A stretch of DNA of 63,369 nt, taken from Chloroflexota bacterium. GTDB taxonomy: Bacteria > Chloroflexota > Anaerolineae > Promineifilales > Promineifilaceae. The position numbers were made by a program, and so were the translations under genes. Positions 277 through 63,061 of the stretch are shown piece after piece. The stretch spans positions 1 through 63,369 of the forward strand of contig JAGNBF010000038.1 of assembly GCA_018004935.1 (NCBI GenBank), in the 5' to 3' direction. The notes below the pieces were generated by a model. It was not told the origin of the DNA. It saw only the letters and a program-made list of their open reading frames with translations, and ran no database searches. How positions within the stretch are numbered: position 1 is the stretch's first letter; every line of letters starts with the position of its first letter.

Positions 277-924
277 ATGTTACTCACTTCTGATCAGATT
301 CATGCGTTTTGCTGTGATGGTTATTTGATTGTGCCCCAGTTTTTCGCGGCCGCAGAAACACAAAGATTGCGCTTAGAAATGGAGCGACTGGTACAGGAAG
401 ATCGCGGCCGCAATGTTATGCCCTCCTTTACCGGCAAAATCAACTACCAGATTACCCCATTGGCGGACAAAAGTGACCTGTTCCGTGATCTCCCCACCCG
501 TCCTGATGTTTTAATTACAGTGGAACAGCTCATTGGCTCCCCGGCGCGGCTCTGGCTGGATCAAATTTTCCTTAAACCGGCCCAGGTGGGGGCTGGCAAT
601 ACCTGGCACATAGACAATGGCCGTTTTCAGGTGGCCGATCCAGCACGGGGGTTGGGTATGTGGATCGCTCTGCATGATTCCAGCCGCGCCAATGGTACGT
701 TGGAACTCATTCCCCGTTCTCACCTCTTACCGCCAGAATCATTTTTGCGCCCCGGTCAGTTTTTACCTACTCCGCCTGAGGGGAGTGAGGCTGTAGCCAT
801 GATTGCCGAAGCGGGGGGTGTCATCTTCTTTAACTTTGGTATCTTGCACTGCACCCGCGATAATCTCTCTGACGCTGACCGGGCGGCTCTGGTGTACCAT
901 TTTTATGCTGAACCAACCGGTTAG
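277..924 (+). CDS. Phytanoyl-CoA dioxygenase (PhyH) family protein
   Basis: A 215-residue Fe(II)/2-oxoglutarate-dependent oxygenase of the PhyH superfamily. The metal triad is visible as H111-x-D113 in TWHID and a distal H191 in GILHC, with R194 three residues later as the likely 2-oxoglutarate-binding arginine. The segment NGTLELIPRSH (139-149) is typical of the family, which hydroxylates small molecules, often lipids or secondary metabolites. The substrate cannot be told from sequence. The ATG at 277 is preceded by GGAAAAG at good spacing. An in-frame TTG at 259 would add six residues. The stop overlaps by 4 bp the stop of the convergent ABC permease gene. Two GCGGCCGC octamers lie in the 5' half. 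Confidence 0.85.
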   Translation: MLLTSDQIHAFCCDGYLIVPQFFAAAETQRLRLEMERLVQEDRGRNVMPSFTGKINYQITPLADKSDLFRDLPTRPDVLITVEQLIGSPARLWLDQIFLKPAQVGAGNTWHIDNGRFQVADPARGLGMWIALHDSSRANGTLELIPRSHLLPPESFLRPGQFLPTPPEGSEAVAMIAEAGGVIFFNFGILHCTRDNLSDADRAALVYHFYAEPTG

Positions 925-3371
925 GGTTTGACGACAATCTGGCGCACGAGTTTGATGAGGGTCAGGTTGAGCGTCTGCCCGATCTGGCGATAGGTGTCCA
1001 GGCTCTGCGGCGACCAGCGCAGAGATAAGACAGGTACATCCAGGGTGAGGGGGGCCGGAGATGCCAGAGGATGAGCCAATGCGGTGCTGGTGGTAATGTC
1101 TAGTTCGCGGGCACTGGTTTGGAACACATCTAATAGGAGCGGGTCGGATGTGGGATCGGCCCAGAGGGTTGCGGCCGCGGCCGCAGACGTTTCTATTACT
1201 ACCACATATGCTGGTTGCAACGGGGGTGAGGGGATCATGGGGTTGAGCCGGGCAAAACTTTCCGGGTCGGCCAGGAGTGCCTGAGCCTCAGCCGGGGTGC
1301 CAGCCCAGGTGATAAACAGCACTGAACGCATGGGGTTGATATTTTGTTCTTGCCAGTTGCGGGCCAGTTCCAGAAGTAAGGCGGTGCTGGCTGTATTGGG
1401 GGGGGTATCGCTTCCTGACTCTACGCGTATTCCCGGATCACACACCAGGACGACGACCATTTCTTCGGCCAGATTGACGCCATAACCGGAGCGGAAGGCG
1501 ATGATGCTGTGCTGGCTGAACAGTTGCGGCCGCGGCAATTGTACGGATAGCGCCACCTGTACCGACCAATCCTGGCGGAACCACCCGGCCCCATTTTGTG
1601 GGGGTGGGGTGAGCAATGTTTCCGGGGTGCGGCCCACATGGCTTAAAAGTTGGGTGGTAGCGGCCTGACTGAGGCGCACAATCGGCAGGGTGGGGTTTCG
1701 CAGGTAATCCGCGGCCGCGTCGGCCGGGTAGAGTGTTTCATCGGCTACGGTGGTTTCATTGGTGAGCCAGAGAACCGCCTGTGCCCCCCGGCGCAAAGCT
1801 TCTGTGGCAAATGTTGGCGGGGCGTTGCCCGTGAGCAACACGGCTACGCGGCCATGTAATGACAATTCTTCCCAGCTATCTGTGCCAGGGGTAAAACCGA
1901 CAAATGTCAGTGGGGCTGTGGCCGCCCCACTGCCACCGTGTCCGGCTACCACAAAGGCAAAATCTGTGCCTGCGGTAAAGGCTGTTTGGGCTTTCCCGGT
2001 GACATCGAGTAAGGTCAAGGTGGGGGTGACAACCGGACTTACCCACATTTGGCCGGTGGTTTGGGGGTAAAAGTAGGTGGTTCCAAACCCTTCTTCTTCA
2101 CGCCAACCCCGTTGCCAGTCCCATTGGGTGAGTTGTTGGGACAGATAGGCCACTGGTTCGTTATGACCTTCACTGTCTAACGCGGCCGCGTTCAGGTTAG
2201 TCAGGGTAGTTGCCTCCGTTTGGGCCTGGGTAGCATCAAAGGCCTGGGCCGCCTGTTCGTAGGAAAATTTTGGCCCGGTGTAATCGAGAATGAAGGCGGA
2301 AATGAGGATGAGCGCGGCCGCGAATAGCACCATCCGCCGCCGCAGGAGAAAGCTGGTATTAAGGCTGGCCCGCTCCAACAAGGTGCGTAACCCTTCGGCA
2401 AACACATTCAGCCCCATTACGGCCACAAAAACCATCAAGGCTGGAGCCAGTAGTTTGTATGGCTGTGCCCGTAAACTATTCACCGCCTGGGAAATGAGCA
2501 TTCCCCACTCGGGCACTTCCGGTAGAGGCACTGGATTACGTGGGGACATAGGTTCGCCCATATCAAATGCAGTACCTCCACCGATAAACACCCCCAGGAA
2601 CCCTAATTCGGCCAGGAGTAACAAGGCCGCACTCATTTCCAAAAAGGCGACAACGAGCAGTTGGGGCAAAATGTTGGGCAAGACATGGCGCACGACAATC
2701 TGTAGACTCCGTAAACCGGTGGCTACGGCGGCTTCAATGTATAACTGCTGGCGGATGACCAGCAGTTCGCTCTGCACTACCTGGGCAATCTCTGTCCAGC
2801 CGGTGAGGGTTAGAGCTACCAGGAAAACGGGCAGACCATTACGGATATCCAGGGCATAGATGAGAATGTAACTGCTAAGTAAGATGGGTAATGAGGTGAT
2901 AATGGCGATGAGGGCGGTAACGGCCTGATCGGGCCAGCGTCCGGCGAACCAACCGGCCAGGCCGCCCAGGAGTGTGCCGAGTAGGACCCGCCCCAAGGTG
3001 ATGTACACGACGGCCACTAAGGTTACTCGCGCTCCATGCAAGATGAGACTGAGCAGATCGTTGCCCCAGTTGTCTGTGCCGAAGGGATATTGGCTGGAAG
3101 GGGGGAAGGGCGGCCGCACCATTTTCCCCAGCTCGCTATCAAAATGGGGAACGACGGAGATGGCGGTGATGTGGGGATCATAGGTGGCCCAGAGGGGGCC
3201 AAAAAGGACGATGAGTAATAACCCGATGACGACGACACTGCCCAGAAGCAAGGGCAGGTTGAAAAGAATGTCGCGCCAGGTGAGGCGGGCACGCGGCCGC
3301 GATGTGAGGGGGGTATGCGGCCGCAGGCGGGTTCGGGGGTTTAGCAAGAAAGAAAAGAAGCGAGATAACAC
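921..3371 (-). CDS. DppC-type ABC permease fused to an extracytoplasmic PA/M28-like module
   Basis: 816 residues, more than twice the usual 280-300 of a DppC/OppC permease. Residues 1-335 are a normal peptide-type permease: an N-terminal membrane segment at 37-60, the Dpp/Opp-specific FGTDNWGND (97-105) and the coupling loop EAAVATG (213-219). A further membrane segment at 347-363 leads into about 450 extra residues, presumably outside the membrane. That part resembles a protease-associated domain (about 470-590) followed by a degenerate M28 aminopeptidase fold (about 604-816). The M28 landmarks are recognisable, for example TASTALLLELAR at 660-671, but the usual metal ligands are replaced: C-D at 644-645 instead of H-x-D, N at 659 instead of D, and AGTPAEAQ instead of the Glu-Glu motif. 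I infer a substrate-binding rather than catalytic role. It starts 10 bp after the partner permease stops. Confidence 0.85.
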   Translation of the reverse strand: MLSRFFSFLLNPRTRLRPHTPLTSRPRARLTWRDILFNLPLLLGSVVVIGLLLIVLFGPLWATYDPHITAISVVPHFDSELGKMVRPPFPPSSQYPFGTDNWGNDLLSLILHGARVTLVAVVYITLGRVLLGTLLGGLAGWFAGRWPDQAVTALIAIITSLPILLSSYILIYALDIRNGLPVFLVALTLTGWTEIAQVVQSELLVIRQQLYIEAAVATGLRSLQIVVRHVLPNILPQLLVVAFLEMSAALLLLAELGFLGVFIGGGTAFDMGEPMSPRNPVPLPEVPEWGMLISQAVNSLRAQPYKLLAPALMVFVAVMGLNVFAEGLRTLLERASLNTSFLLRRRMVLFAAALILISAFILDYTGPKFSYEQAAQAFDATQAQTEATTLTNLNAAALDSEGHNEPVAYLSQQLTQWDWQRGWREEEGFGTTYFYPQTTGQMWVSPVVTPTLTLLDVTGKAQTAFTAGTDFAFVVAGHGGSGAATAPLTFVGFTPGTDSWEELSLHGRVAVLLTGNAPPTFATEALRRGAQAVLWLTNETTVADETLYPADAAADYLRNPTLPIVRLSQAATTQLLSHVGRTPETLLTPPPQNGAGWFRQDWSVQVALSVQLPRPQLFSQHSIIAFRSGYGVNLAEEMVVVLVCDPGIRVESGSDTPPNTASTALLLELARNWQEQNINPMRSVLFITWAGTPAEAQALLADPESFARLNPMIPSPPLQPAYVVVIETSAAAAATLWADPTSDPLLLDVFQTSARELDITTSTALAHPLASPAPLTLDVPVLSLRWSPQSLDTYRQIGQTLNLTLIKLVRQIVVKP

Positions 3372-3381
3372 AAATCACCTG

Positions 3382-4296: not shown

Positions 4297-4321
4297 AAAA
4301 CCGTCATCCGTTTTTGACCTG

Positions 4322-5862: not shown

Positions 5863-5902
5863 GGTTTTTAAAGGTCTGAGCGGAGTAAAAGAGACTGCCT
5901 CG

Positions 5903-18508: not shown

Positions 18509-21500
18509 TTAAAGGGTCTGGGAGCGGCGGCGCAGGATGACGGCGATGCCACTGGCAACCAGCAGGGCGAACATGATAAAAGGTAGGGAAGAGAACGCGC
18601 GGCCGCGTACTCCCACCAATGTCACATCCGTCGGCGTACCAACGATGATCTGTACCAGATCCGTATCTGTACCCGTGTCATCATCGGTGATTGTCAATGT
18701 GGCCGTAAACGTACCCGCCGTCTGATACAAATGGGTGGGTGTTAACGTGCCGGTGATAATCGTACCATCGCCCAGGTCCCAAACAATGTCATGGCTATCC
18801 AACGTGCCAGGGTCAATGAATGAACCGGCAAAGTTGACGACGGTGGCGAAGTCTACGGTTTGATCTGGCCCGGCGTTGACATCAGGATTGACATTGTTCA
18901 CCATCAGCGTTGTTGCATCAGCATCCGTGCCGGTGTCATCATCGGCGATGCCCACGGTGACGGTGTACGAGTCGGCGGGTGTGCCGGTAGGATCATCGTC
19001 CAGGTAGGTGTGGGTTTCGCTGATGGTGGTTGTGCCCGCACCATAGTTGAACGTTTCGGTGATGCCATCACCCCAATCCACGACGACGGCGAAGGTGTCT
19101 AGCACGCCGGGGTCAATGAGGTTAGCGGTGAGCGCGGCCGCGTCGTTTTCATTGACGCTCGCCACAGCCAGGCTATCCAGCACCGGAGCCACGTTGTCCA
19201 CGGTGATCGTCGTCGTCATCACATCCGTACCACCGTTATCATCGCTGAGGATGAGCGTCACGGTGTAGGTGTCAGACGGGGTAGCGGTGGGGTCGTCGTC
19301 CTGGAAGGTGTGGGTTTCGGTGAAGGCGGTGGTCGCGGCCGCGTAGTTAAACGTATCGGTGATACCATCCCCCCAATCCACCGCCAGGGTAAACGTATCC
19401 AACGGGCTGATCTCGTTGATGTTGCCGGTCAACGTCGCCGTATCCCCTTCATTCACACCGGTGGGGAAGGTTACATTGCTCAACGTTGGGGCCTGATTGT
19501 TGACCACTACGGTAACTGTCTGGGTAATCACCCCACTGTCATCGTCACTCAACGACAGGGCCAGACTGAAGTTCGCCAGGAGCAGTTGGCGCAGTAAGCC
19601 ATCATCCAGATATTGATGTGTCTCGATAAAGGCCGTTGTGCCTGCCGGATAGCTGAACGTTTCGGTGATGCCATCGCCCCAACCAACGGTCAGGGTAAAG
19701 GTGTCCTGCGTTCCCACTTCGGCGATGAAACCGGTCAGCGTCACCACCTCGGTTTCGGTAATGGCGGCGGTGGCGGTCACATTATTGAGTGCCGGAGCCA
19801 CATTGTTGACGGTGAGCGTCGCAGTGTCCGTGTGAGAACCGGTGTCATCATCTGTCAAGGTCAACGAAACGGTGTACGAGTCCGACGAGGTGACGGTGGG
19901 ATTGTCATCCAGGAACTGATGGGTTTCGGTGAAGGTGGTGGTTCCGGCAACATAGTTGAACGTCTGCGGAGCCGAACCATCACCCCAGTTGACCACCAGG
20001 CTAAAGGTGTCCAGCGTACCGGGGTCGGTAATCGTACCGGTCAGGGTAGCTGTATCGTCCTCATTGATGGGGGAACTAATGACCAGACTACCCAACGCCG
20101 GAGCCACATTGCTCACGGTCACGCTGGTGGTGTCGGTGTCGTTGCCCGTGTCATCATCGGTGAGCGACAGGCCGATGGTGTAGTTGTCGGACGGGGTGGC
20201 GGTGGGATTATCGTCCAGGTAGGTGTGGGTTTCACTGAAGCTGGTTGTACCCGCCACGTAGTTGAACGTCTGCGGGGCGGAACCATCACCCCAATCTACC
20301 ACCAGGCTGAACGTATCCAATGTGCCGGGGTCGGTGATCGTGCCACTTAGCGTGGTAGAACCGTTCTCGTTGATGTTCGTGGCGGCGACAGCCGAGAGGG
20401 TCGGAGCGACGTTGTTGACCGTTACGGAGGCACTGTCCGTATCGCTACCGGTGTCATCGTCCGTCAGGGTCAGGCTGATGGTGACATTGTCGGAGGGCGT
20501 ACCGGTGGGATTGTCGTCCTGGTAGGTGTGAGTTTCACTGAAGGTGGTGGTTGCGGCCGCGTAGTTAAACGTCTGCGGGGCCGAACCATCCCCCCAATCT
20601 ACCACCAGGCTGAACGTATCCAACGTGCCAGGGTCGGTAATCGTGCCACTCAACGTAACCGCGCTCCCTTCGTTGACATTGGCCGTGGCCGTCACCCCGG
20701 AGAGAGTCGGAGCCACGTTGCTGACGGTGATGGTGTCACTATCCGTGTCACTACCCGTATCATCATCCGTCAAAGTCAGGTTAATCGTCACATTATCCAC
20801 TGGTGTGCCGGTAGGATTGTCATCCAGGTAGGTGTGGGTTTCGCTGAAGCTGTTTGTGCCCGCCGCATAGTTAAACGTCTGCGGGGCCGAACCATCACCC
20901 CAGTTCACCACCAGGCTGAACGTATCCAACGTGCCAGGGTCGGTAATCGTACCGGTCAACGTGGTTGTGCCATTTTCGTTGACGTTGGTTGCGGCCACGG
21001 CTGAGAGCGTCGGCGCAACATTGCTGACCGTAAACGTTGTGTTGTCCGTATCACTACCGGTGTCATCATCGGTGAGCATCAGGCTAATGGTGTAATCGTC
21101 GGACGATGTGCCGGTAGGATTGTCGTCCAGATATTGATGGGTTTCGCTGAAGCTGGTTGTACCCGCCGCATAGTTGAATGTTTGCGGAGCCGAACCATCA
21201 CCCCAGTTCACCACCAGACTGAACGTATCCAACGTGCCAGGGTCGGTAATCGTGCCGGTCAAGGTTGTCGAGCCATTTTCATTGATGTTGGTGGCCGCTA
21301 AGGTTGACAGGCTGGGTGCCACGTTGTTGATGGTGATGGTGTCAGAATCGGTATCACTGCCGGTGTCATCATCAGCCAGCGTGAGGTTCACCGTGTAACT
21401 GTCCGATGCTGTGCCGGTAGGATTGTCGTCCAGGTAGGTGTGTGTCTCGCTGAAGCTGGTTGTTCCGGCGGGATAGTTTAACAACTGTGGCGCGGAACCA

Positions 21501-24500
21501 TCACCCCAGTCCACCGTCAGTGTAAACGTATCCTGTGTGCCCGGATCGGTGATTGTACCGGTGAGGGTTGCCGTGCCGTTTTCGTTGTGGGGTGAGGTGA
21601 TGTTGACACTGCTCAGGCTGGGGGCGATGTTGTTGACGGTGATTGTGGTGCTATCTGTGTCGTTATTGCCAAAGGTATCTGCCAGGGTCAGATTCACCGT
21701 GTAATTGTCGGACGCTGTGCCGGTGGGATTATCGTCCAGATAGGTATGCGTTTCGCTGAAGCTGGCCGTTCCTGCGGGGTAGGTATACACATCGGTAACA
21801 CCATCGCCCCAAACCACCGTCAGGGTGAAACCATCGCCATCAGAGTCTAGCATATTGCCCGTGAGGGTAGTTGAGCCATTTTCGTTGATGGGGCTGGTGA
21901 TAGCCACATTGGACAACACGGGGGGCTGGTTGCGAATGGGGGTGCTGTCACTGCCACAGTTGTCGGCGGGGTTCAGGTCGGTACCATTGGCCCCGTTGTC
22001 ACTGGCGCAGGCGGTGTTGTTGATGACGATGACACCAGGAGCGGGGTTGTCCACGGTGACGACGAAGGTGGCTGTACCGGAACCACCACCACCGGCCAGG
22101 GGACCAACGGTGAGGGTACAGACACTGCCCGCGTTGTTATTCGGTACGCAGACCCAACCGGCGGAACTGGCGGTAGGATTGAAGGTTGTGTTGGCGGGTA
22201 CGGTATCGGTTACGACGACGCCTATGGCCCCCTGGTTGCCTGCATTGGTGTAGGCGATGGTGTAGGTGATGTTTTCACCGGGCAGGAAGTCCAGACCGCC
22301 ATCGTCTTTACCAACCTGGAGATCGGGCGCGGCCGCAATCGGGGTCGTATCCGTATCGCTGTTGTTGCCAGGGGTGGGGTCGGCTCCATTCGTGCCGTCA
22401 TCGGCAATGGAGGCGGTGTTGCTGGTCTGCGTAACGCCTGCCGCTACGGGATTCACAACCGTCACAGCGAAGGTCGCCGTGCCTGTGCCGCCACCACCCG
22501 CCAACGACCCGACCGCCAGGGTACAGGTACTGCCTGCATTATTGTCCGGGACACAACTCCAACCGGCGGTGCTGGCCCCCGCATTGAAGACGGTATTGGC
22601 CGGAACGACATCCGTCAGGGTAATGCCGGTTGCGCCCTGGTTGCCGCTGTTGGTGTAGGTGAGGGTGTAAGCTATCACACCACCCGGTGTGCCAGTCGCC
22701 CCACCATCCGATTTGCTCAACGACAGGTCAGGCACAGCCGTCAGCGGCGTGGTATCGGTGTCGCTGTTGTCGGCGGGGGTGGGGTCGGTTCCGTTCGTGC
22801 CATCATCGGCGACCGAGGCGGTGTTGCTGATTTGTGTGACGCCGCCCGGAACCGGGTTGTTGACGGTCACGGCAAAGGTTACAGATGCCGGGCCACTGGT
22901 GACAGGCACAGCCCCGATGATGATGGTGCAGACACTCCCGGCGTTGTTATTGGGTACGCAACTCCAACCGGCAGTGCTGGCTCCGGCGTTGAAGGTGCTG
23001 TTGGCCGGGACGGTATCGCTGAGGGTCACACCTGTGGCATTCTGGTTGCCTACGTTGTCGTAGCTGAGGGTATAGGCCACCGTGCCGCCGGGTGTGGTCG
23101 TTGCGCCGCCATCATCTTTGGTGAGGGTCATGTCGGGCGCGGCCGCGACCGGTGTCGTATCGCTACTACTGTTGTTGGCAGGCGTGGGATCCGCCCCGTT
23201 CGTGCCGTCATCGGCGACTGAGGCGGTGTTACTGATTTGCGTGACACCACTGGGAACCGGATTCGCAACGGTAACGGCGAAAGTTGCCGAACCAGAACCG
23301 CCGCCGCCAGCGACAGCCCCAATTGCCAGGGTGCAGGTGCTACCCGCGTTGTTATCTGGCACACAACTCCATCCGGCGGTGCTGGCCCCGGCGTTGAAGG
23401 TGCTGTTGGCGGGGACGGTTTCACTGAGCGTGACGCCGCTTGCGCCCTGGTTGCCGTTGTTGGCATAGTTCAAGGTGTAAGCCACCGTACCGCCCGGTGT
23501 GGTTGTCGCACCACCGTCACTCTTGGTGAGGGTCATATCTGGCGTGGCTGTGACCGGGGTGGTGTCACTACTGCTGTTGTTGCCAGGCGTGGGGTCAGCC
23601 CCATTCGCGCCATCGTCGGCGATGGTGGCGGTGTTGCTGATTTGGGTGACACCGGCCGGAATCGGATTGATTACCGTAATAGCGAAGGTAGCCGAACCGG
23701 AACCGGTTGCCGCTACCGCACCCACGGCCAGGGTACAGGTGCTACCGGCGTTGTTGTCAGGGACACAACTCCAGCCTGCGGTGCTAGCTCCCGCGTTGAA
23801 GGTGGCGTTGGCGGGCACGGTTTCACTGAGGGTGACGCCCGTTGCCCCCTGGTTGCCGTTGTTGGCATAGTTGAGGGTATAGGCGACCGTACCACCGGGT
23901 ATGGTTGTCGCGCCGCCATCATTTTTGGTTACGCTGAGTTCGGGCGCGGCATTTACAGGGGTGGTGTCGGTGTCGCTGTTGTTGCCAGGATTGCTGTCTG
24001 GCCCATTTAGCCCATCGTCACCAATGGTGGCGGTGTTGGTGATCTGGTTGACACCGGCGGCGACAGGGTTGATCACCGTAACCGCATATGTGGCCGAGCC
24101 ACTACCAAATCCAGCCACTGCGCCAATCGCCAGGGTACAGGTACTCCCGGCATTGTTGTTGGGGGTACAGGCCCATCCGGCGGTGCTGGCCCCCGCATTG
24201 AAGGTGGTGTTGGCAGGGACGGTTTCGGTGATGACGACGCCGGTTGCGCCCTGGCCGTTTTGATTGGTGTAGACGAGGGTGTAGGCGACTGTGCCACCTG
24301 GGGCGACGGTCGCGCCACCATCGCTCTTCTCGATGGTGAGATCAGGGGTATTGGTGACGGGGGTGGTGTCGGTGCTACTGTTGTTGGCGGGGGTAGGATC
24401 AGCCCCATTATTGCCATCGTCACCGATGGTGGTAGTGTTGCTGATGCTTGGCCCACCGAGGTAGGGATCGTCTACCGTGACAACGAAGATGATGAAACCG

Positions 24501-27500
24501 TTGCCACCACCACCGCCAACCGTGCCAACGGTGATGGTACAGATGCTACCGGCGTTGTTGTTGGGGGCACAGCTCCATCCGGGATTGCTGGCGGTGGGGT
24601 TGAAGGTGCTGTTGGCCGGTACGGTATCGGTGATGACGACGCCGGTGGCGTTCTGGTTGCCGTTGTTGGCGTAGCTCAGGGTGTAAGTGATGAGGTCGCC
24701 GGGTTCAACGGTGATGCCGCCGTCGCTCTTGGTGATGGTGAAGTCGGGCGCGGCATTGATGGGGGTGGTGTCACTGCCGCTGTTGTTGGCGGGGGTGGGA
24801 TCGGCTCCATTTGTGCCATCATCGGCGACTGAGGCGGTGTTGCTGATTTGGGTGACACCAGCGGGAACCGGGTTGATTACCGTCACGGCAAAGGTGGCAC
24901 TACCCGTACCACCGCCACCGGCTACGGCTCCTACGGCCAGGGTACAGGTACTACCGGCGTTGTTATCGGGAATACAAGACCATCCGGCGGTGCTGGCTCC
25001 GGCATTGAAGATGGTGTTGACCGGGACAGTTTCACTGAGGACCACGTTGGAAGCGCCCTGGTCGCCATTGTTGGTGTAGCTCAGGGTGTAAGCGACGGTG
25101 CCACCGGGTGAGCTGGTTGCGCCACCATCACTTTTGGTGAGACTCAGGTCGGGGGTGGCGGTGACAGGTGTGGTGTCACTGCCGTTGTTGTTGCCAGGGG
25201 TAGGATCGGCTCCATTTGTGCCATCATCGGCGACGGTTGCGGTGTTGCTGATTTGGGTGACACCGGCAGGAACCGGGTTCACGACGGTTACAGCGAAGGT
25301 AGCCGAACCGGAGCCACCGCCACCAGCTACGGCTCCAATTGCCAGTGTACAGGTACTTCCGGCGTTGTTGTTGGGCACACAGACCCAACCGGCGGTACTG
25401 GCTCCGGCGTTAAAACTGCTGTTAGCGGGTACGGTTTCGGTCAGGTTCACGCCGGTTGCGCCCTGGTTGCCGTTGTTGGCGTAGTTCAGGGTGTAGGCAA
25501 CGGTGCCGCCGGGGGTTGTGGTTGCCCCGCCATCACTCTTGGTGAGGCTCATGTCCGGTGCGGCGTTGATGGGTGTGGTGTCACTATCGCTGTTGTTGGC
25601 GGGGGTGGGGTCGGCACCGTTCGCGCCATCATCGGCGACCGAGGCGGTGTTGCTGATTTGGGTCACACCGGCCGCAACCGGGTTCACGATGGTGACGGCA
25701 AAGGTGGCTGTTCCACCCGCGTTGCCACCGTTGACTGTGCCCACATTGAGCGTACAGACACTGCCCGCATTGTTATTAGGAACACAGGCCCAACCAGCGG
25801 TGCTGACACCTGCATTAAAGGTGCTGTTGGCGGGCACGGTGTCGGTGAGGGTGACGTTGGCGGCACCCTGGTTGCCGGTGTTGTTGTAACTCAGGGTATA
25901 GGCGACGACACCACCGGGTGTGCCTGTTGCGCCGCCATCACTTTTACTGATAGTCAGATCAGGGTTGGCGGTGATGGGAGTGGTATCGGTGCTGTTGTTG
26001 TTGGCCGGGGTGGGGTCAGTGCCGCCTGTGCCATCGTCGTCAATCGCGGCGGTGTTGCTGACCGCATCCAGACCGGCGGGGGCCGGGTTGTTGACGGTCA
26101 CGGCGAAGGTGGCAGAGGCCGCGGCCGCGCCCACATTCACATTCCCCACATTCAGCGTACACACACTGCCCGCGTTGTTATTGGGTACACAACTCCAACC
26201 GGCGGTACTGGCCCCAGGGTTAAAAGTGGTGCCAACTGGGACGGTATCACTTAACGTCACACCGCTGGCGTGTTGGTTGCCGGTGTTGGAATAGGTGAGG
26301 GTGTAGGGAATGACATCACCCGGCACGGCGGAGGGTATACCACCGTCTGTTTTGACAACATTCAGGTCGGGCGCTGCATCAATTGGTGTGCAGGTAGGAT
26401 TGGCCGCCCCCGCTACACTGGGGTCATCAGAAAGGACGTTACTGAAATTACTGCCGCTAATGGTGGCCTGGTTACAGGTGGTGTTGCTACCTGCCGGGAA
26501 TGGGTTTTGAATGACTACCTGGAAGGTGATGGTGGTTTGTTCGCCAAAGGGCATGGTGAAGGGACCAACGGTTGTGATGGCCTCGGGGGCGCGGGCGGGT
26601 AGGGTGTCATCGTTGGTGGGGGTGGGGGGTGCGGCCGCGTCAAGAATCGCCGCACCCGGCTCCGGTGTCTCTTCAGCAATAGGAGTTGCCGAGGGGCTGG
26701 GTTCAATTCCTAAAGTTGGGTAGGGCACAGGTGGAACAGATGAACCCTCAGAGGTAGCCCCTTCTTCAGAAGATATAGCCGGATTGCCTGAATCGGTGGT
26801 TTCAGATGGATTGATCTCGGCATCTGGGCTAGAGATGTAAACCGGGGCAAATGTTGGCAGTGGCGGATTGGTACAGGTGCCATTAAACGTGGGGACGCTA
26901 CCGGCGACGGTGGCCCCACTATTGGCTCCAGCTAGATTGGCAACGGATGATTGGGTGATCTGTCCCACTGCCGGAGCCGCCCCAATCGTGAAATTAATTA
27001 CGCCGGGGGATCCCAAGGCTCCGTTGTCGTTACCCGTAAGATGATAACAACTGTTGGCTTCATCCTGAGTGATGAGAACGATTTCATCTTCATTCGCATC
27101 TACATCAATGTTGATCAGGTCGTTATCAACAAAACGCACCTGTCCTCTGGGGGTAAATACGCCTAAATCTTCATCTGAGAAATAGCGGAAAGCCTCAGAG
27201 GTGGTTTCTCGGAAAGTGTTACCTTCTACGGTCAGGTATAAGTTGCCCTGATGATCCCGGTTCAGGACCTGCATCCCATCATCCCCGCGGCTGTTCAGGT
27301 CAAAACTGTTGTTCAGGACAGCAATGGTCCAGGTGCGGTTTTCGCCGCCGGTAAACCCATCCAGGCTCAGGCGAACACCATCCCCAAGTCCGGCCGCGGG
27401 ATCCATGCTGACGGTGTTGCCGCTAATGGTGCCGTTGAGATTACCACCGGTTGTTCCGGCTGTGGCTATAATAATCCCTTCGATGGTGTTGGTGAGGGTA

Positions 27501-29728: not shown

Positions 29729-29817
29729 GTGATTCTCCCGATGAAATCTGAGTGGATGGAATTGGGGATGGGCAGAATTGAACAGGCGGGTTTCCCAGTG
29801 ATACAAGTTTTGTTTTG

Positions 29818-38167: not shown

Positions 38168-39961
38168 CTACGCCTTCTTTTGCCACAACTTCATCGCCAC
38201 CATCGCCACGGGGATGGCCGCGGCCGCGATCACGGCCAACGCGACTGGCACATTGACCTTTTTGGGCTGGCTGTGGCCGTTGCTATGACCGTTGGCCCCG
38301 TGCCCGTTGACGAGATGGGGATAACGCGTCTGCCAGGGTTGCGCGGCCGCGGGGACTTTGCTCATCGCCCGCTCGGCCATCGCCGTGATGGTCAGGCTGG
38401 GGTTCACCCCCAAATTGGCCGGGATGACCGAGCCATCTACCACGTACATGCCAGGATAGTTGAACACCTCATGGTTCAGGTCTACCACCCCTCTGGTCTC
38501 GTCCTGCCCAATACCACAACCCCCGAGAATGTGGGCGGTGGATGGGGTATCGAGCAAGGCTTCGTTGATGGTGCTCTGGGGGATGCCGTTGACCCGCTCG
38601 GCGAACATGTTGAGCACCTGCCGCCCGGCGTCAATGACGGCGGGAATGGGCAGGGATTTGTCCCGTTCGCTGACAAGCCCTTTGAAGAAGAGGGTAAACA
38701 GGTTGCGGCCGCGGCTCAAATGCATTCGGTTCTCTACCGTCTGCATCACAAGCAAAATCGTGCCATCCCGCGCCCAGTCGGGCAAAATCCGCGCCTTCAA
38801 CAAATCATACGGGTTACGCAAACCATAAGCGACAAAACCCAACATCCGGCGCAGTGGCCCACCCTTCAAATCAGTCAATGGCACGGCCAGATTCCGCAAC
38901 AGCGACGAGCCACGCGGGTAGCGCACAGGCTCCACACTCGTCACCTCATCAATCCAAAAGTGGGACGTAATCGCTACCCCCTGCGAGAAATCGTCACTCT
39001 CTTCCCGTGCCGTCACCCCTAGCAGAGCCTCACTGTTGCTCCGCACCATCTTACCTAGCCGCGCCGATAGTTTGGGCAGGGATTGGGTCTCATTCCGCAG
39101 ACGCAGGAGCAAATTCAGCGTCCCCAACACCCCCGCCGCTACCACCACATTGCGCGTCCGCACCACCGTTTTCGGTTTGATCAACCAGGCAGTTGTCCGC
39201 TCATACACAATTTCATACCGTGCCCCGTCCGGTTCCCCTTCTGGTAGAGGCCGAATATCCACCACATTGGCTTCCGGGCGCACTTCCGCCCCCCACTTCT
39301 CCGCCAGATACAGGTAATTTTTGTCCAGCGTGTTTTTAGCGTTGTGGCGGCAACCAACCATACAACCGCCACAATGGATACACCCGGCCCGGTCTGGCCC
39401 TTCGCCATCGAAGTACGGATCGGGCACGGTTTTGCCCTGTTCACCAAAGAAAATCGCCACCGGCGTGGGCTTGAAGGTGTGTTCTTGCCCTAACTCGGTG
39501 GCGATCTCTTTCAAAATATAGTCGGCGGCCCAAAATTTGGGGTTGGGCACAACACCGAGCATCCGGTTGGCGGTGTCGTAATGGGGTTCCAACTCGGCTT
39601 CCCAATCCGCCAGCCCCTTCCATTCCTCGGCCTCGAAGAAGGTTTGGCCCGGTTTGATGTGGGTGCTGGCGTAGACCAGACTGCCGCCGCCCACCCCGGA
39701 ACCGTTAAGGATGAGGATGTCATTGAGAAAATTCAGCCCCATGTAGCCAAAGCAACGTAGGGCGGGCATCCAGAGAAATTTAGGCACATTCCAGTTCGTT
39801 TTGGGGAAATCCTCGGCGTTGTACCGTTTGCCCCGCTCCAGGACGAGGACACGATACCCCTTTTCGGTCAGGCGCATGGCCGAGACACTACCGCCAAAAC
39901 CGGAACCGACGATCACATGGTCAAACGTATCACCAGCGGGGACGGATTTGTTCAGGTGCAT
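38168..39961 (-). CDS. GMC-type FAD oxidoreductase with C-terminal membrane anchor
   Basis: 597 residues. N-terminal FAD-binding VIVGSGFGGSVSAMRL (about 16-31) with GVGGGSLVY further on; a cysteine-rich CIHCGGCMVGC at about 193-203, seen in the cholesterol-oxidase-like/glucose-methanol-choline family; C-terminal GMC motif region with AHILGGCGIG, and NPSLTITAMAERAM. The last 25 residues (VPVALAVIAAAAIPVAMVAM plus KLWQKKA) are a membrane anchor after an N/H/G-rich linker. Together with the anchored aldehyde dehydrogenase downstream it suggests a membrane-bound route alcohol to aldehyde to acid, perhaps for fatty alcohols or sterol-like substrates (inference). No recognisable signal peptide. Confidence 0.88.
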   Translation of the reverse strand: MHLNKSVPAGDTFDHVIVGSGFGGSVSAMRLTEKGYRVLVLERGKRYNAEDFPKTNWNVPKFLWMPALRCFGYMGLNFLNDILILNGSGVGGGSLVYASTHIKPGQTFFEAEEWKGLADWEAELEPHYDTANRMLGVVPNPKFWAADYILKEIATELGQEHTFKPTPVAIFFGEQGKTVPDPYFDGEGPDRAGCIHCGGCMVGCRHNAKNTLDKNYLYLAEKWGAEVRPEANVVDIRPLPEGEPDGARYEIVYERTTAWLIKPKTVVRTRNVVVAAGVLGTLNLLLRLRNETQSLPKLSARLGKMVRSNSEALLGVTAREESDDFSQGVAITSHFWIDEVTSVEPVRYPRGSSLLRNLAVPLTDLKGGPLRRMLGFVAYGLRNPYDLLKARILPDWARDGTILLVMQTVENRMHLSRGRNLFTLFFKGLVSERDKSLPIPAVIDAGRQVLNMFAERVNGIPQSTINEALLDTPSTAHILGGCGIGQDETRGVVDLNHEVFNYPGMYVVDGSVIPANLGVNPSLTITAMAERAMSKVPAAAQPWQTRYPHLVNGHGANGHSNGHSQPKKVNVPVALAVIAAAAIPVAMVAMKLWQKKA

Positions 39962-40208
39962 AGGACAATACCTTTTGGAAGCTAGAGGGCAGAGCCAGAG
40001 TTAGAGGAATTCTATCTCCGGCTAAACTCTGACTCAATGGTTAAGCGAGAGCTAAAGCCAGGACGAGGTTTTTTCCTCTAGCTCTCGCTCTAGCTCCATC
40101 CTCTTATAACACAGTGCGTTATAATTTTAGCCTTTTCGCAGGAATTGTCTATGTGAGTTTGGGAGGGAAAGAACTGAGGGATGGATAGATATACTTGAAG
40201 GGATCAAG
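39962..40208. other. Short intergenic repeat region upstream of the GMC gene
   Basis: Holds AGAGCCAGAGTTAGAGG (shared with 34523-34540) and a long imperfect inverted repeat GCGAGAGCTA / TAGCTCTCGC around 40044-40095 with TTTTTT between its arms. The inverted repeat could act as terminator of the restriction gene at its left end. Confidence 0.6.
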
Positions 40209-41309
40209 TTACGGTACAACAATTTCATTGATAGGTCTACTCTCTGCCAGGCGTTTGAGTAACTGTTGTAAGTCCGGCTTGATGGGAGTGCGGATCATGT
40301 CCTGAAAACTGGGTTCACTACGAATTCCTGTGGCAATTGGGCCAGCATAAAGTTGATGATCTTTTAATTCGATGATATCAGTAGGGTTTTGTTGTTGGCT
40401 ACCATACGAGAAACTGAGCATATTGACTTCCGACGAATGGGTGGTAATGAATTGCCGCAAATCCAAAGCTGTGGACGCCGAAATATAGTCGGCTAATGTA
40501 TCTTGCACTAACCACACAGCCTTACCGCCCCAATGCAGGGCTACTTCTGATTTGACGATCAACTGGCTGACCATTCTCGCCCAAACTTGTCGCTTGTTAA
40601 TAGATGGAGCATTGTGTGGTCGTGCTAACAAAGCATCTTCAAAAGCCTGCGCAATGGTCGTTCGCTGAGCCTTATTCCCCCCAGATGTGCTAGAAGTCAT
40701 AATTTCAATGATGCCAGGTATACCAACCGGGCAATCTTCTACAAAATCTTCGTCGTTGTGCCTGATGATAGTATACCCGCCTTGCACAAATACTTTGCGC
40801 CATAACGCCCACGGTGCGAAAAAGGTCGCCAACTGGCTTTGACTAACCGAAGCAATAGGCATCACAATGTAATCGAAGGTATAGTCGAAAGTTTTCGTAA
40901 GACCTTGCCTGGTTTCCGCAAACTTCAGTTTAACCTCTGACCAGACACCCAGCCGTGTACCGGATGGAAAGCCTAATATCCGCACAAGTTCTGCCTCTAC
41001 ATTCATCTGATAGGCTCGTTTGAATGCCTTTTTGCTCCCTAAGATCAGCAACCGCCGAGGACAAACAACCCAGGGTGTTTCATCTTCACGTAGTTGAATG
41101 GAACATACACCAACCGCTACAACTCTCCGCTCTCCAAAATAGGTTTTGAGTAGTTCATTTCTCGTCAAATCTACCTGTGAAGAATAACGATTGCCACCCC
41201 CATCACAAGGCCCCCCCATAAATGGGCAATGTGCAGTATGCCGGGTTTCTTCTGCTATTGGGGTTTTGACGGATAAGGGGTAACCAAATAGTTCATAGAT
41301 TTGGGGCAT
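40209..41309 (-). CDS. NotI-family type II restriction endonuclease
   Basis: 366 residues, close to NotI (383). Points seen in both by recall of the NotI sequence: an N-terminal FG-Y/H start, a Cys-Pro-Phe (C28) in AHCPF, a second Cys (C35), GVC (C69), W-x-V-C-P-x-R-x-L (C83, WVVCPRRLL), an F-D-Y/W segment (D146), and GI-IEIMT (E202; NotI has EIQT). NotI uses a Cys4 iron site and a PD-(D/E)XK fold; the four cysteines here match in order. The Asp-to-Glu spacing is longer than in NotI, so an insertion is likely. It starts 17 bp inside the methyltransferase gene, AAGG spaced before ATG 41309. It lies in the longest stretch without GCGGCCGC. Exact specificity is not shown by sequence. Confidence 0.8.
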   Translation of the reverse strand: MPQIYELFGYPLSVKTPIAEETRHTAHCPFMGGPCDGGGNRYSSQVDLTRNELLKTYFGERRVVAVGVCSIQLREDETPWVVCPRRLLILGSKKAFKRAYQMNVEAELVRILGFPSGTRLGVWSEVKLKFAETRQGLTKTFDYTFDYIVMPIASVSQSQLATFFAPWALWRKVFVQGGYTIIRHNDEDFVEDCPVGIPGIIEIMTSSTSGGNKAQRTTIAQAFEDALLARPHNAPSINKRQVWARMVSQLIVKSEVALHWGGKAVWLVQDTLADYISASTALDLRQFITTHSSEVNMLSFSYGSQQQNPTDIIELKDHQLYAGPIATGIRSEPSFQDMIRTPIKPDLQQLLKRLAESRPINEIVVP

Positions 41310-42420
41310 TAAACACCTTGATGATTTCTGTGGCAAGGGCATGAGCAACTGGTGGTGGGACAGAATTAGCGACCTGGCGATGTTGATCCAGGCGACGCGC
41401 ACGCCCAGAACGTCCACGAATAGGGCCACGGAGAATATATTCATCCGGGTAGCCATGAATACGCATATATTCACGGGGGGTTAGATAGCGATTATCTGTA
41501 GGGTGAAAAAATATTTCGCCACAACGCAATGTATTAGACGGTTCTTGTCTTGAAAGTCGTTTGAACTTGGTTGTGTCTTTTTTCGTCAAATTACAGCGTT
41601 GTTCCTTGGGCAAATGGTGTTGTGCCGCTAAATGCGAACCTTCCGGGACACCATTGATGCGAAAACGGTCACCACTCGGCGTAACATCTAAGTGGCTGTT
41701 TTCAGGAATATATCCATTTTGCGGATAGGGGGAACCCAAACCATTGAGTACTTCGCCTACTGTTATAAACGGAGGCAAAGAAAAGAGGGGTGTCGTTTTA
41801 CCTTGTGCATTATGGGTGGGTTCTGGGAATTGGTAATTATTTGGTCTAAGGGTGGCTACAATAAACACCCTCTGGCGAAGTTGAGCCACACCATATTCGG
41901 CAGAGTTAACAACCTTCCATTTAGGCACATAACCTAATACTTCTAGTTCTAGCAACAGTTGTTCAAAAGCTCCCCCAGGCTTACCGTTTTCATCAGGTGA
42001 ATTAAGTAAACCCTTCACTTGTTCAATGAGAATGGCACGGGGCTTAAAGATTGCCGCAAAACGTGTCATTTCAAAGAGCAATAAACCACGTGAATCATTC
42101 AGACTGTGCCGTTTACCAATTTGGGAAAATGCTTGACAAGGGGGACCGCCACATAATAAATCCAATTGACCACTGGCTAAGGATAGTTCAGCCATTAGCA
42201 TAGCAGGATCGATCTGGCGAATGTCTTTTTCAATTACTTTTGTCTGCAATTGTTCGCGCTGAATATTGTCACGGAGCGTTTCGCAGGCATAGGGATCGAG
42301 TTCAACACAGGCCAATACATCGAATCCAGCTTGCCTGACACCAATATCCATCCCCCCTGCTCCCGAAAATAAGGATAAGGCTCTGAACTTGTTTTTCGTC
42401 GTTACAATTGCATTTTCCAT
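41293..42420 (-). CDS. DNA cytosine-5 methyltransferase
   Basis: 375 residues with ordered C5-methyltransferase motifs: I LSLFSGAGGMDIG (15-27), IV GGPPCQAFS with catalytic C95, VI as IEQV (E133; the common form is ENV), VIII YGVAQLRQRVFIVA (176-189), a variable target-recognition region, and IX/X ending in QVANSVPPPVAHALA near 360. It methylates carbon 5 of a cytosine in a specific DNA site. Paired with the overlapping endonuclease gene, it is probably the protective methylase of a type II system. Composition is more A/T-rich than neighbours and it contains no GCGGCCGC, consistent with recent transfer. Confidence 0.93.
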   Translation of the reverse strand: MENAIVTTKNKFRALSLFSGAGGMDIGVRQAGFDVLACVELDPYACETLRDNIQREQLQTKVIEKDIRQIDPAMLMAELSLASGQLDLLCGGPPCQAFSQIGKRHSLNDSRGLLLFEMTRFAAIFKPRAILIEQVKGLLNSPDENGKPGGAFEQLLLELEVLGYVPKWKVVNSAEYGVAQLRQRVFIVATLRPNNYQFPEPTHNAQGKTTPLFSLPPFITVGEVLNGLGSPYPQNGYIPENSHLDVTPSGDRFRINGVPEGSHLAAQHHLPKEQRCNLTKKDTTKFKRLSRQEPSNTLRCGEIFFHPTDNRYLTPREYMRIHGYPDEYILRGPIRGRSGRARRLDQHRQVANSVPPPVAHALATEIIKVFNAPNL

Positions 42421-42479
42421 GCGAAAATTTTAGCACACATGCTCTAAGGGGAAAACCTTTGCGCGGCCGCATCCTGCAC

Positions 42480-61049: not shown

Positions 61050-61168
61050 TCGGGATTTCAGGGGGTTGACACCATCTGTATGGGCAACCCTTGTGGTTGC
61101 CCTCGGCGGGGCAGGCACAAGGCCAGCCCCTACATGTAGCCGCACCCCACGAATTCCGAAAGACCCAT
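61050..61168. repeat. Dispersed repeat family I, copy 4
   Basis: CAGGGGGTTGACACCA at 61058-61073, GGGCAACCCTTGTGGTTGCC at 61082 and GGGGCAGGCACAAGGCCAGC at 61109, with flanks matching 6770-6872 but the inner block inverted. Confidence 0.65.
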
Positions 61169-61201
61169 AAAAACCGGGTTTTTCGGAAAAACCCGGTTTT
61201 T
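61169..61201. terminator. Perfect 15-bp hairpin with A/T ends
   Basis: AAAAACCGGGTTTTT, loop CGG, AAAAACCCGGTTTTT. Symmetrical and able to stop transcription in both directions. It interrupts the 3' end of the decayed hsdM sequence. Confidence 0.8.
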
Positions 61202-61814
61202 AGGCGGATGTCATCCAGGGAGCGCAGGGGTTGGGGTCTGTAAAAGTAGCGGGTGAAGCTACTCTCGTGACCAATTTTCTGGCTGGGGGGGTCTACCCAG
61301 GCGTCCGGGGCATGGGGCAACACCTCACGCCAGATGAACGCGGCGATGCCACCCGGCTCCAACAGAGGTATCTGTTCGGTGTCGCGTAAATCGCTTTCTC
61401 GGCTAACGGTTGCAGGGCAGACAGGAAGGTATTGAAGTTGGTATGAGGGGCAGGGCCGAGGATGGTAGCGGCCTGGACTATGAGTTGGGCCAGGGCCTCT
61501 TCCCCGGCGTCGGCGTAGGCCAGATGGAAGGGGTGCGGCTGGCCGGGGTCAGGTCTACGAGGCGCAGGGAGCGTTCGACGGTTACTTTGGCTTAATCAAA
61601 AGCGGCATTGGGGAAGATGATTGTCCGCGGCCGCGTCTTCCCCCTTGAGCAAGGAGTTGGCTGTGGCGATGGCATAGGTTGCGGCGTTGATTTCCTGGCC
61701 GTAGAGGTGGGTGGCGACCTGTTTGCTATGTTGCCTGGCCAAAGCCTGCCAGGTTTCCTCAACCACCGTCCTTACGTTGGGGAAGCGTAGGCGGCTAAAA
61801 ACAAAAAAAGCCAC
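61196..61814 (-). pseudogene. Decayed type I restriction methylase (hsdM) fragment
   Basis: Two separated pieces on the minus strand resemble HsdM. One is HLYGQEINAATYAIATANSL with LLKGEDAAADN (61605-61760 area), the conserved N6-methylase region. The other is REVLPHAPDAWVDPPSQKIG followed by HESSFTRYFYRPQPLRSLDD (61209-61330), the usual HsdM C-terminus ending in the IRLK of the former IRADI. They are in different frames with stops between, and the N-terminal third and catalytic NPPF motif are missing. This is a relic of a type I system. Confidence 0.7.
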
Positions 61815-62126
61815 CTCGCGATGACTCTTTTTCTGGTAAGGCTTTGCACCTCACCACTGTACTTTTTGTTTCACAGCCAGGCTGACGACCATAGTGGAAA
61901 CAGAAAGGTTTAGGACATTAACAACTATTTTTAAGGTTTTTTATCGTGACCGATTGTGTCAGCAATTGTGTGTGTACCAGATGTCATTGTACGTACACAG
62001 CGGCACGATAAAAAAAAGGCCATCAGCGAGAATCAGTCGCTGATGGCCGGGTGTCTTCCACACGGATGGGCATGGGTAGACGCTTTCAGTCTACCCTACT
62101 CCCTCTTTACTTTCAAGGAGTGAAGT
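61815..62126. other. Intergenic region with orphan terminator-like hairpin
   Basis: No gene. The only clear structure is the hairpin at 62018-62048. The rest is A/T-rich and may hold the promoter of the downstream membrane-protein genes. Confidence 0.7.
62018..62048 (-). terminator. Hairpin with T-run on the minus strand
   Basis: Perfect 11-bp stem GGCCATCAGCG / CGCTGATGGCC, loop AGAATCAGT, followed on the minus strand by at least seven T. No minus-strand gene ends here now, so it may be left from a lost gene or shield the region from antisense transcription. Confidence 0.75.
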
Positions 62127-62705
62127 ATGAGTGAGGTATTGGCGATCTTTAACGCGATTTCTGATTTTGTTTTGGCCGGGTTGATGCTCGTGCTCATGGG
62201 GGCATTGCTCTATCTGCTGTTTCTGGCCCTCATCACAATGGTGCGTAACAAGCAACCACGCTGGGATGCGATTGCCTATGTCCTGGCTATTCTCTTCCTG
62301 GGGCTGGCGATGTGGCGGTTCTTCCCCACGATTGCCGTGCGGACGATTCGTGTATCCCTGGAAGAGTCCCGACCGGAAATATTGTTGCTCCAGGACGAGA
62401 TCCGGCGCTGGCTGCCCAGGCTTGAGGTGACATTGCCCGCGGCCGCGCCCACTATCAGCAGTACACCCGTTCCGGATACAGCTTTGGTTATCCCGTTGGT
62501 GACCCCAACAATGACCGAACCGGCCATCACCATGACGGCAACGTTCCCTATTTCGGCCACACTGCTTCCGGCCACGGCAACACCGTATCCGACTTACACT
62601 CCCTGGCCCACACCCACACCAGTGCCTACGGCTACGCCCTGCCTGGTCAACGTGAACGGGCACTGGTTGGTCTGTCCACCTACACCGATGATCGGAGGGA
62701 ATTAA
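62127..62705 (+). CDS. Small membrane protein with Thr/Pro-rich tail
   Basis: 192 residues: two hydrophobic helices (about 8-38 and 48-66), a helical segment, and a Thr/Pro-rich C-terminal half (TPYPTYTPWPTPTPVPTATP) ending with two Cys in CLVNVNGHWLVC. A clear GGAGTG ribosome site precedes the ATG. The order helices then Thr/Pro stalk suggests that the tail is outside the cell. No family recognised. First of three adjacent membrane-protein genes. Confidence 0.75.
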   Translation: MSEVLAIFNAISDFVLAGLMLVLMGALLYLLFLALITMVRNKQPRWDAIAYVLAILFLGLAMWRFFPTIAVRTIRVSLEESRPEILLLQDEIRRWLPRLEVTLPAAAPTISSTPVPDTALVIPLVTPTMTEPAITMTATFPISATLLPATATPYPTYTPWPTPTPVPTATPCLVNVNGHWLVCPPTPMIGGN

Positions 62706-62706
62706 G

Positions 62707-63061
62707 ATGAAAGAGTTTTGGTTGATGGGACGAGCCATCGCGGCCGCAATTCGGTTAAACAGTCGGCAAATGCTGACATTGGGCCTCATCTTCGGGCTTA
62801 TTATGGGCCTGGTGGTTGGCCTGACCGTGGGTTGGATCATCTGGCCGGTGGGCTATGCGGGTGAGGTCTCCATTTCCCAAGTGCTATACGTGGAGATGGT
62901 GGCTGATTTGTTTGCTTTTGACCGCAACCAGGCCCGCGTGAAGCAGGCAATGGCCTGGCCGGACGCGGCCGCGACAACCTGCGTCATGATGCAATACTCA
63001 ACCGATGAGGACCGACGGGTGCGTTTGTGGATGATTTTGCTGGTGTTAGACGAGGAGTGTC

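What the first reader, a model, noticed from the sequence alone, without database searches (positions are those of the whole stretch)
346..62971. Genome-style over-representation of the NotI octamer GCGGCCGC
About 104 copies in 63 kb by eye, where composition alone predicts about two. They are spread evenly through unrelated genes on both strands and in all codon frames, which rules out a repeated gene as the cause. Most are YGCGGCCGCR. The core CGGCCG without the outer G/C is rare, so selection or a copying bias acts on the full eight bases. The nearest known parallel is the cyanobacterial HIP1 palindrome; I know of no description of this octamer as a HIP-like element in Chloroflexota.
Basis: seen in the sequence. 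Interest (0 to 1): 0.92.

Follow-up and report, generated by a model that had tools for sequence, protein, structure and literature searches.

The report
Octamer filling nearly every permitted place
In this uncultured bacterium one eight-letter DNA palindrome sits at about nine in ten of the places where its proteins allow it, relatives do the same with slightly different palindromes, and some viruses carry them too, which points to a strong unknown force that rewrites DNA at one exact sequence.

Summary
The count is right: 104 GCGGCCGC in the window, 12,040 in the 7.98-Mb genome against 2 for the reversed octamer; about 60-fold over order-1 expectation in a 393-kb sample. Of 400 phylum genomes drawn, no other exceeds 2,136. 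It is one dialect of a family-wide trait. In this Anaerolineae family the core CGGCCG is hyper-abundant and the outer base pair differs by lineage: ACGGCCGT in most sampled genera, TCGGCCGA in two genomes, GCGGCCGC here, any outer pair in some, no excess in three. The octamer is near saturation: it occupies 620 of 691 places (90%) where the protein sequence permits it here, and 802 of 897 in 14 ACGGCCGT genomes. In one genus, where encoded residues are unchanged, sites are kept in 241 of 247 comparisons (controls 48-62%). Dialect tripeptides are 4-6 times over-represented in proteins. Some phage contigs carry it too. Enrichment is alike in coding and intergenic DNA; spacing is random. Closest known kind: cyanobacterial HIP1. 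A conserved, mostly solitary methyltransferase, here beside a NotI-family endonuclease gene, is the best candidate agent, with exceptions. The mechanism (methylation-directed repair ratchet) is inferred; there are no methylation data.

The parts
346..62972 (.). 104 copies of GCGGCCGC (palindrome), spread through the window; 96 of 105 places permitted by the predicted genes are occupied
38713..42462 (.). largest stretch of the window without the octamer (between copies at 38705 and 42463); holds the restriction-modification pair below
   Evidence: positions
41293..42420 (-). C5-cytosine DNA methyltransferase (375 aa, PF00145 E 1.5e-62); 0 of 2 permitted places carry the octamer; not thought to be the driver
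40209..41474 (-). ORF (421 aa from first GTG; true start probably further in) overlapping the methyltransferase gene; PADLOC REase_II E 4.6e-6; four cysteines align with NotI-family endonucleases although no Pfam match is found; 0 of 1 permitted place carries the octamer

Best explanation
GCGGCCGC is the local dialect of a HIP1-like, family-wide, sequence-specific DNA-shaping force. Shown: the force acts on core CGGCCG plus, in most lineages, a lineage-specific outer base pair; in genes it fills about 90% of the places where the protein permits the octamer; within a genus it preserves a site as long as the encoded residues stay the same; dialect-specific tripeptides are common in the proteins; it is blind to gene, frame and spacing; and some phage and mobile-element contigs carry it. 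Inferred: a palindrome-specific DNA protein, most likely the conserved ~670-aa amino-methyltransferase found in most of the family (here directly beside a NotI-family endonuclease gene), marks the octamer, and repair or recombination guided by that mark favours the strand that carries the complete octamer. Near-matches are then ratcheted to the full octamer and decay is reversed on any DNA replicated in the cell. A change in the protein's preference for the outer base pair would give a new dialect.
For: Family-wide core with outer-pair dialects. Saturation: 620/691 here, 802/897 in 14 ACGGCCGT genomes, 115/151 in two TCGGCCGA genomes, control octamer 0/469. Sites kept 241/247 when residues are unchanged, controls 48-62%. 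Tripeptide footprint by dialect. Same fold excess in and between genes, random spacing. Phage contigs filled: L409 11/13, L361 31/32, L398 36/38. Candidate agent: one methyltransferase matching 40 of 51 genomes, in 29 of 30 octamer-dialect genomes v 9 of 15 others, P 0.0035 without kinship correction; NotI-family endonuclease gene (PF12183, E 5.5e-11) directly upstream of it here. In genus g3, G007 has the enzyme and an octamer, G008 lacks it and has only the hexamer.
Against: No methylation or enzyme data. The methyltransferase is not found in G042, which has a full ACGGCCGT dialect (33/39), nor in five g22 genomes and G008, which have the hexamer; it is present in g17, where the excess is weak, and as a fragment in G014, which has none. 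The enzyme here is closer to those of ACGGCCGT genomes (G016 64%, G025 63%) than to those of TCGGCCGA genomes (G007 48%, G026 50%), so enzyme similarity does not predict the outer pair. Within this genome and G004 the octamers share no position in the one gene compared between dialects. Retention between more distant genomes is low, 15% v 6.5%. Repair genes were not examined.
Confidence: 0.4

Rival explanations
1. Direct selection for the mark: the octamer (perhaps methylated) identifies self DNA to a nuclease, or binds a chromosome-organising protein, so each extra copy is favoured and each loss purged.
For: Near-frozen sites in g2 (241/247), amino-acid changes tolerated to gain sites, phage contigs that carry the host-type octamer, NurA nuclease gene beside the methyltransferase in 5 of 20 loci.
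Against: Would need effective selection on some 12,000 separate copies; no spacing or gene-type preference; occupancy stops only at the protein limit, with no sign that enough copies are enough.
Confidence: 0.25
2. DNA-uptake drive: competent cells take up DNA bearing the octamer, and recombination spreads it, as for uptake sequences of Neisseriaceae and Pasteurellaceae.
For: Lineage dialects around a fixed core, about 1.5 per kb, effect on proteins.
Against: Perfect palindrome; near-complete filling of permitted places; phage contigs are filled as well. Competence genes were not searched.
Confidence: 0.1
3. It is the protected recognition site of a working restriction-modification system (NotI-like endonuclease plus methyltransferase) that selects for the site itself.
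For: A NotI-family gene adjoins the conserved methyltransferase here and in G016, and its motif is seen in G023; NotI cuts GCGGCCGC (recalled).
Against: Only 2 of 20 loci examined have the endonuclease gene (several loci end near the gene), yet the other genomes are saturated too; a site that is cut should be avoided by phages, but phage contigs are full of it.
Confidence: 0.08
4. Artefact or by-product of base composition, codon or amino-acid usage, repeats or assembly.
For: The commonest frame is alanine-rich GCG GCC GCN, 364 of 588 copies within genes.
Against: Frames needing rarer codons are enriched at least as much, 128 v 3.1 and 96 v 1.6; same O/E between genes; GCCGCGGC, permitted at the same 439 alanine places, fills 53; every one of the 21 sampled pieces has 0.9-2.4 copies per kb.
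Confidence: 0.02

Closest known systems
HIP1 (GCGATCGC) and alternate HIPs of cyanobacteria (Elhai 2015, PMC4390886; abstract, sections 7 and 12, part 1 of section 18, and passages seen)
   Same: GC-rich palindromic octamer at about one per kb; the excess belongs to the whole octamer more than to its parts; alternate sequences in some lineages; methyltransferases as suspected agents. HIP1 on two cyanobacterial plasmids also fills most permitted places: 27/42 and 54/81.
   Different: Other phylum; core CGGCCG not CGATCG; outer pair A-T, T-A or G-C by lineage, so the G-methyl-C rule proposed by Elhai cannot be general; filling reaches 90%; Elhai expects the ratchet to stop at about one site per 1000 nt, whereas here only the protein limit is seen; no conserved C5 methyltransferase.
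DNA uptake sequences and their dialects (Neisseriaceae, Pasteurellaceae; Frye 2013 PMC3630211 seen as listing and start of abstract; PMC1939737 as passages)
   Same: About one copy per kb, dialects among related genera, drift toward the motif.
   Different: Uptake sequences are not palindromes (passage in PMC1939737); here the motif is a perfect palindrome, close to saturation, and also on phage contigs.
NotI-type restriction-modification (PF12183)
   Same: The octamer here is the NotI site (recalled), and a NotI-family gene adjoins the conserved methyltransferase here and in G016.
   Different: A restricted site is normally avoided; here it is near saturation. The plasmid NotI-family genes looked at sit beside C5 or adenine methylases, not beside this enzyme. 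Specificity untested.
Chi / KOPS-type chromosome motifs
   Same: Over-represented octamers with a role in handling self DNA (recalled).
   Different: Those are strand-biased and not palindromic (recalled).

Membership tests
Highly iterated palindrome (HIP) | A palindromic octamer far above expectation over the whole genome | tested here: met
   12,040 copies, control 2; 61-fold at order 1
Highly iterated palindrome (HIP) | Dispersed in unrelated coding and intergenic sequence, not part of a longer repeat | tested here: met
   flanks only weakly biased beyond one base
Highly iterated palindrome (HIP) | Cyanobacterial HIP1 sequence GCGATCGC itself | tested here: not met
   0 of 198 permitted places carry GCGATCGC
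Highly iterated palindrome (HIP) | A methyltransferase that modifies the sequence or its core | tested here: inconclusive
   conserved candidate in most genomes with exceptions; specificity unknown
DNA uptake sequence | Non-palindromic motif with preferred uptake by competent cells | tested here: not met
   motif is a perfect palindrome; uptake itself not testable with these tools
NotI family (PF12183), protein on contig C49 (L323:9861-10664) | Profile match above the curated cut-off | tested here: met
   42.7 bits, cut-off 22
NotI family (PF12183), window ORF 40209-41474 | Profile match above the curated cut-off | tested here: not met
   no Pfam match up to E 10, although the four cysteines align
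Restriction site of a NotI-like system | Octamer cut when unmodified and protected when modified | not testable with these tools
   needs expressed enzyme

The most novel reading that the evidence does not exclude
A bacterial family runs a cell-wide, sequence-specific conversion machine that rewrites near-matches on chromosomes, phages and other mobile DNA into one lineage-specific octamer until only protein function stops it, changing amino acids on the way. Its outer base pair drifts like a dialect as the specificity of a DNA-marking enzyme changes.
Probability: 0.4. Interest if true: 0.95.

Novelty: new variant of a known kind. Interest (0 to 1): 0.87.

Why it matters
What HIP1 is for has been open since its description in 1995 (title seen in a reference list). 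This family offers natural experiments: the same core with different outer pairs in related lineages, two states inside one genus (G007 and G008), apparent losses (G022, G014, G015), and phage contigs with the same motifs. Near-saturation gives a simple quantity (fraction of permitted places filled) that can help to separate repair bias from selection, and shows that a DNA-level force can write tripeptides into a proteome. In practice it could assign phages to hosts and flag recently acquired genes.

Tried and rejected
1. Window C5 methyltransferase and its endonuclease as the driver: 63-65% relatives lie in G038, G025 and G013, whose GCGGCCGC counts are below their control counts, and the pair itself lacks the octamer at all 3 permitted places.

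2. A universal C5 methyltransferase: PF00145 matches 24 of 51 family genomes; G001, G004, G005, G020 and G029, with 0.79-0.97 occupancy, have none.

3. A conserved classical N4/N6 methyltransferase: at E 1e-20 34 of 51 have PF01555; the solitary one on contig C95 has only one further relative over most of its length, at 28%. Weak permuted hits led to the conserved enzyme.

4. A shared C5 methyltransferase (66-76% identical in G008, G033, G048 and G049, all hexamer-type) as the hexamer enzyme: dropped, because plasmid dcm-annotated enzymes are 55-61% identical in the 12 rows listed of 4,024, and G047 showed none as close while G051 has no PF00145 match.

5. Even spacing as a functional signal: distances are exponential-like.

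6. Conversion of dialect at fixed places: this genome and L213 (= G004) share no octamer position in the one gene compared, Tex; not shown.

7. Positional conservation beyond the genus is weak: in 7 other ACGGCCGT genomes (63% nucleotide identity) 15% of sites kept v 6.5% of controls; g17 hexamers 24% v 17%. rpoB alone looked stronger between genera, 69% v 14%, but rests on few positions; the rpoC half of that script found no sequence.

8. PDB sequence searches of the endonuclease candidates gave no relative.

9. Left out: the ACGGCCGT pool uses 14 genomes picked for amount of sequence; per-genome values for 22 are (21 of 22 at 0.67-0.97; G027 0.31, 4 of 13). State labels of 45 genomes were set by hand; fragments (G012, G014, G018, G030) counted as presence. 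Genes in scripts come from a simple codon score, not a trained gene finder.
Full report
OBSERVATION. The window holds 104 GCGGCCGC. Its genome (7.98 Mb, 229 contigs, 96.6% complete) holds 12,040, or 1.51 per kb, and 2 of the reversed octamer. In a 393-kb sample the octamer is 61 times the order-1 expectation (604 v 9.9), 37 times order 2, 20 times order 3 and 7 times order 4; at order 6 the expectation is 562, because the motif supplies most of its own 7-mers. It ranks first among the 256 palindromic octamers at orders 1 to 4. Most one-step neighbours are near or below expectation; the largest excesses are GTGGCCGC (17 v 10.4) and GCCGCCGC (14.5 v 9.9). Enrichment is alike in coding (578 v 7.5) and intergenic (65 v 0.97) DNA and exceeds codon expectation in each frame (364 v 11.4, 128 v 3.1, 96 v 1.6). 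Distances between copies are close to exponential (CV 1.04, n = 631). Flanks favour Y before and R after; C...G is the commonest pair, 269 of 604.

ONLY THIS GENOME HAS THIS OCTAMER AT THIS LEVEL. Among 51 other genomes of its family the highest count is 1,959. Of 400 phylum genomes, this one included, the next highest has 2,136.

A FAMILY-WIDE TRAIT WITH DIALECTS. Stretches of 1.7-20 kb from 40 family genomes (35 analysed), joined by rpoB regions to cover 45 genomes, show the core CGGCCG in excess in most, with an outer pair that differs by lineage. ACGGCCGT: g2, g4, g5, g6, g8, g9, g12, g13, g15, g16, g19, g20. TCGGCCGA: G007 (g3) and G026 (g14). GCGGCCGC: this genome. Any outer pair: G008 (g3) and g22; weaker in g17 and g21. 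No excess: G022 (g11), G014 and G015 (g7). On an rpoB tree the ACGGCCGT genomes fall in one group (support 0.80) that also holds the octamer-less G022; the TCGGCCGA genomes fall with G008; the place of this genome beside g22 has support 0.08. Over 400 phylum genomes ACGGCCGT reaches at most 471 outside the family (only three family genomes were drawn: this one 83, G036 646, G033 549). Nine named Chloroflexota loci outside (L214-L222; L219 only 3.2 kb) show no dialect-octamer excess. Locus L213, an Anaerolineae MAG (ACE_CHL11, JAHBVI010000119.1), equals G004 base for base over a 1,123-nt overlap, which places the family in Anaerolineae. That it is GTDB Promineifilaceae is my guess, untested.

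SATURATION. For each predicted gene I listed every place where synonymous codons could spell the octamer and asked how often they do. This genome: 620 of 691 places not overlapped by another copy, 90%; window alone 96 of 105; control octamer CGCCGGCG 0 of 469. Fourteen ACGGCCGT genomes pooled: 802 of 897, 89%. G007 and G026: TCGGCCGA 115 of 151. By genome, 21 of 22 ACGGCCGT genomes reach 0.67-0.97, G027 only 0.31 (4 of 13); the other three outer pairs in these genomes stay at 0-0.19. In G008 the hexamer fills 131 of 169 places whatever the outer bases, in three g22 genomes 0.56-0.65, in four g17 genomes 0.32-0.49; in three octamer-less family genomes and seven outside loci 0-0.24, the highest being 11 of 45 in G014. 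Codon usage alone would give this genome about 60 of 735. Of the missed places 53 are overlapped by another copy and 9 are one base away. HIP1 on cyanobacterial plasmids, the only yardstick I could fetch, fills 27 of 42 and 54 of 81.

MAINTENANCE. In regions around the methyltransferase gene of five g2 genomes (143 ordered gene pairs), when the encoded residues are the same the octamer is kept in 241 of 247 comparisons (160/160, 59/65, 22/22 by frame) against 62, 52 and 48% for permuted octamers of the same composition; comparisons share genomes and are not independent. When residues differ it is lost in 49 of 57. Among 7 other ACGGCCGT genomes retention is 15% v 6.5% and for g17 hexamers 24% v 17%, so places turn over. 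In Tex this genome and G004 share no octamer position.

PROTEIN FOOTPRINT. Tripeptides that spell a dialect are over-represented where that dialect is used: Thr-Ala-Val 491 v 79 expected in ACGGCCGT genomes (order-permuted mean 89) but 0.80-1.36-fold in the other four groups; Ala-Ala-Ala 439 v 103 here, 1.07-1.71-fold in the others; Ser-Ala-[Asp/Glu] 74 v 19 in TCGGCCGA genomes, 0.85-1.35-fold in the others. Gain through amino-acid change is the simplest reading.

MOBILE DNA. Permitted places filled: L361 31/32, L398 36/38, L349 30/38, L357 14/17, L409 11/13; GCGGCCGC in L568 7/12 and in L061, a stretch of this genome with phage-type methylase genes, 14/18. L409 has terminase, portal and head-protease matches and L568 terminase and portal; the one L398 protein tested had none, and L361 looks like a plasmid or integrative element by eye. 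A site that is cut in the host should be avoided by its phages, so classical restriction at the octamer is unlikely.

CANDIDATE AGENT. C5 methylases match 24 of 51 family genomes and strong N4/N6 methylases 34 of 51; the saturated G005 and G029 have neither, G020 only an N4/N6 hit just under that limit. A weak PF01555 signal revealed a ~670-aa, circularly permuted amino-methyltransferase; 40 of 51 genomes have a match (G021 only a weak one), full-length ones at 48-64% identity. In most of the 20 loci examined it stands without a recognised partner, next to MoxR-like or tRNA-dihydrouridine-synthase-like and other genes (names by eye); NurA (PF09376) is downstream in 5. In this genome (contig C49) and G016 a NotI-family endonuclease gene precedes it (PF12183, E 5.5e-11 and 8.9e-53), and G023's locus has the same cysteine motif. 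NotI cuts GCGGCCGC (recalled), the dialect here. Presence: 29 of 30 octamer-dialect genomes, 9 of 15 others, Fisher P 0.0035 with hand-set labels and no kinship correction. Against: not found in G042 (full dialect), in five g22 genomes and in G008 (hexamer); present in g17 (weak) and as a fragment in G014 (none); and its similarity does not follow dialect. GCGGCCGC holds no adenine, so only cytosine modification is possible inside it.

MECHANISM. Elhai (2015; part 1 of section 18 read) proposed that a methylated G-C step directs mismatch repair so that HIPs accumulate by a ratchet up to about one per 1000 nt, the range of repair. A ratchet fits gain through amino-acid change, near absence of decay, indifference to frame, and presence on phage DNA. 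Two details do not fit: the outer pair need not be G-C, and accumulation appears to stop only where proteins stop it. I therefore favour a ratchet keyed to the local recognition sequence of a marking enzyme (0.4) over direct selection for the mark (0.25). Every step from enzyme to ratchet is inference.

THE WINDOW'S OWN R-M PAIR. A C5 methylase (41293-42420) and an overlapping endonuclease ORF (40209-41474) with the NotI four-cysteine pattern lie in the window's longest octamer-free stretch, and none of their 3 permitted places is filled. The pair also occurs in G013, G025 and G038. It looks recently acquired and is probably not the cause.

NOVELTY. The kind (HIP) is known; the phylum, the core, the dialects, the degree of saturation, the proteome footprint and the filled phage contigs were not found in the held literature. 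Other papers on uptake sequences were seen as listings and starts of abstracts or passages.

Noticed in passing
own genome sample, 425 kb: Many other six-base palindromes are strongly avoided: GAGCTC 0 v 56, CTGCAG 1 v 91, GCCGGC 6 v 152, CGCGCG 2 v 70, GGGCCC 7 v 282, and GCWGC (GCAGC 68 v 800), as if under heavy past restriction.
   Followed up: partly
G000 contig C126, locus L031:674-1468: EcoO109I-type restriction endonuclease (PF14511, E 3.9e-80) beside an N4/N6 methyltransferase.
   Followed up: no
G000 contig C145, locus L032:709-2571: Methyltransferase of 620 aa with a homing-endonuclease-associated repeat (PF18780) at its end.
   Followed up: no
L323:6576-7781 and loci L327, L328, L333, L340: NurA-domain nuclease gene directly downstream of the conserved methyltransferase in this genome, G007, G026, G031 and G025; possible link to its function.
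   Followed up: partly
G014, G033, G038 and G022: The reversed control CGCCGGCG is itself high in some relatives (G038 2,417; G033 1,607; G014 1,077; 7 v 0.5 in 13 kb of G022), so another palindrome may be in excess there.
   Followed up: no
window 18509-29806: Predicted gene of about 3,766 codons on the minus strand, the longest in the window; not annotated here.
   Followed up: no
viral loci L361, L398, L349, L357, L409, L568: Uncultured viral or mobile contigs whose octamer dialect suggests hosts in this family.
   Followed up: partly
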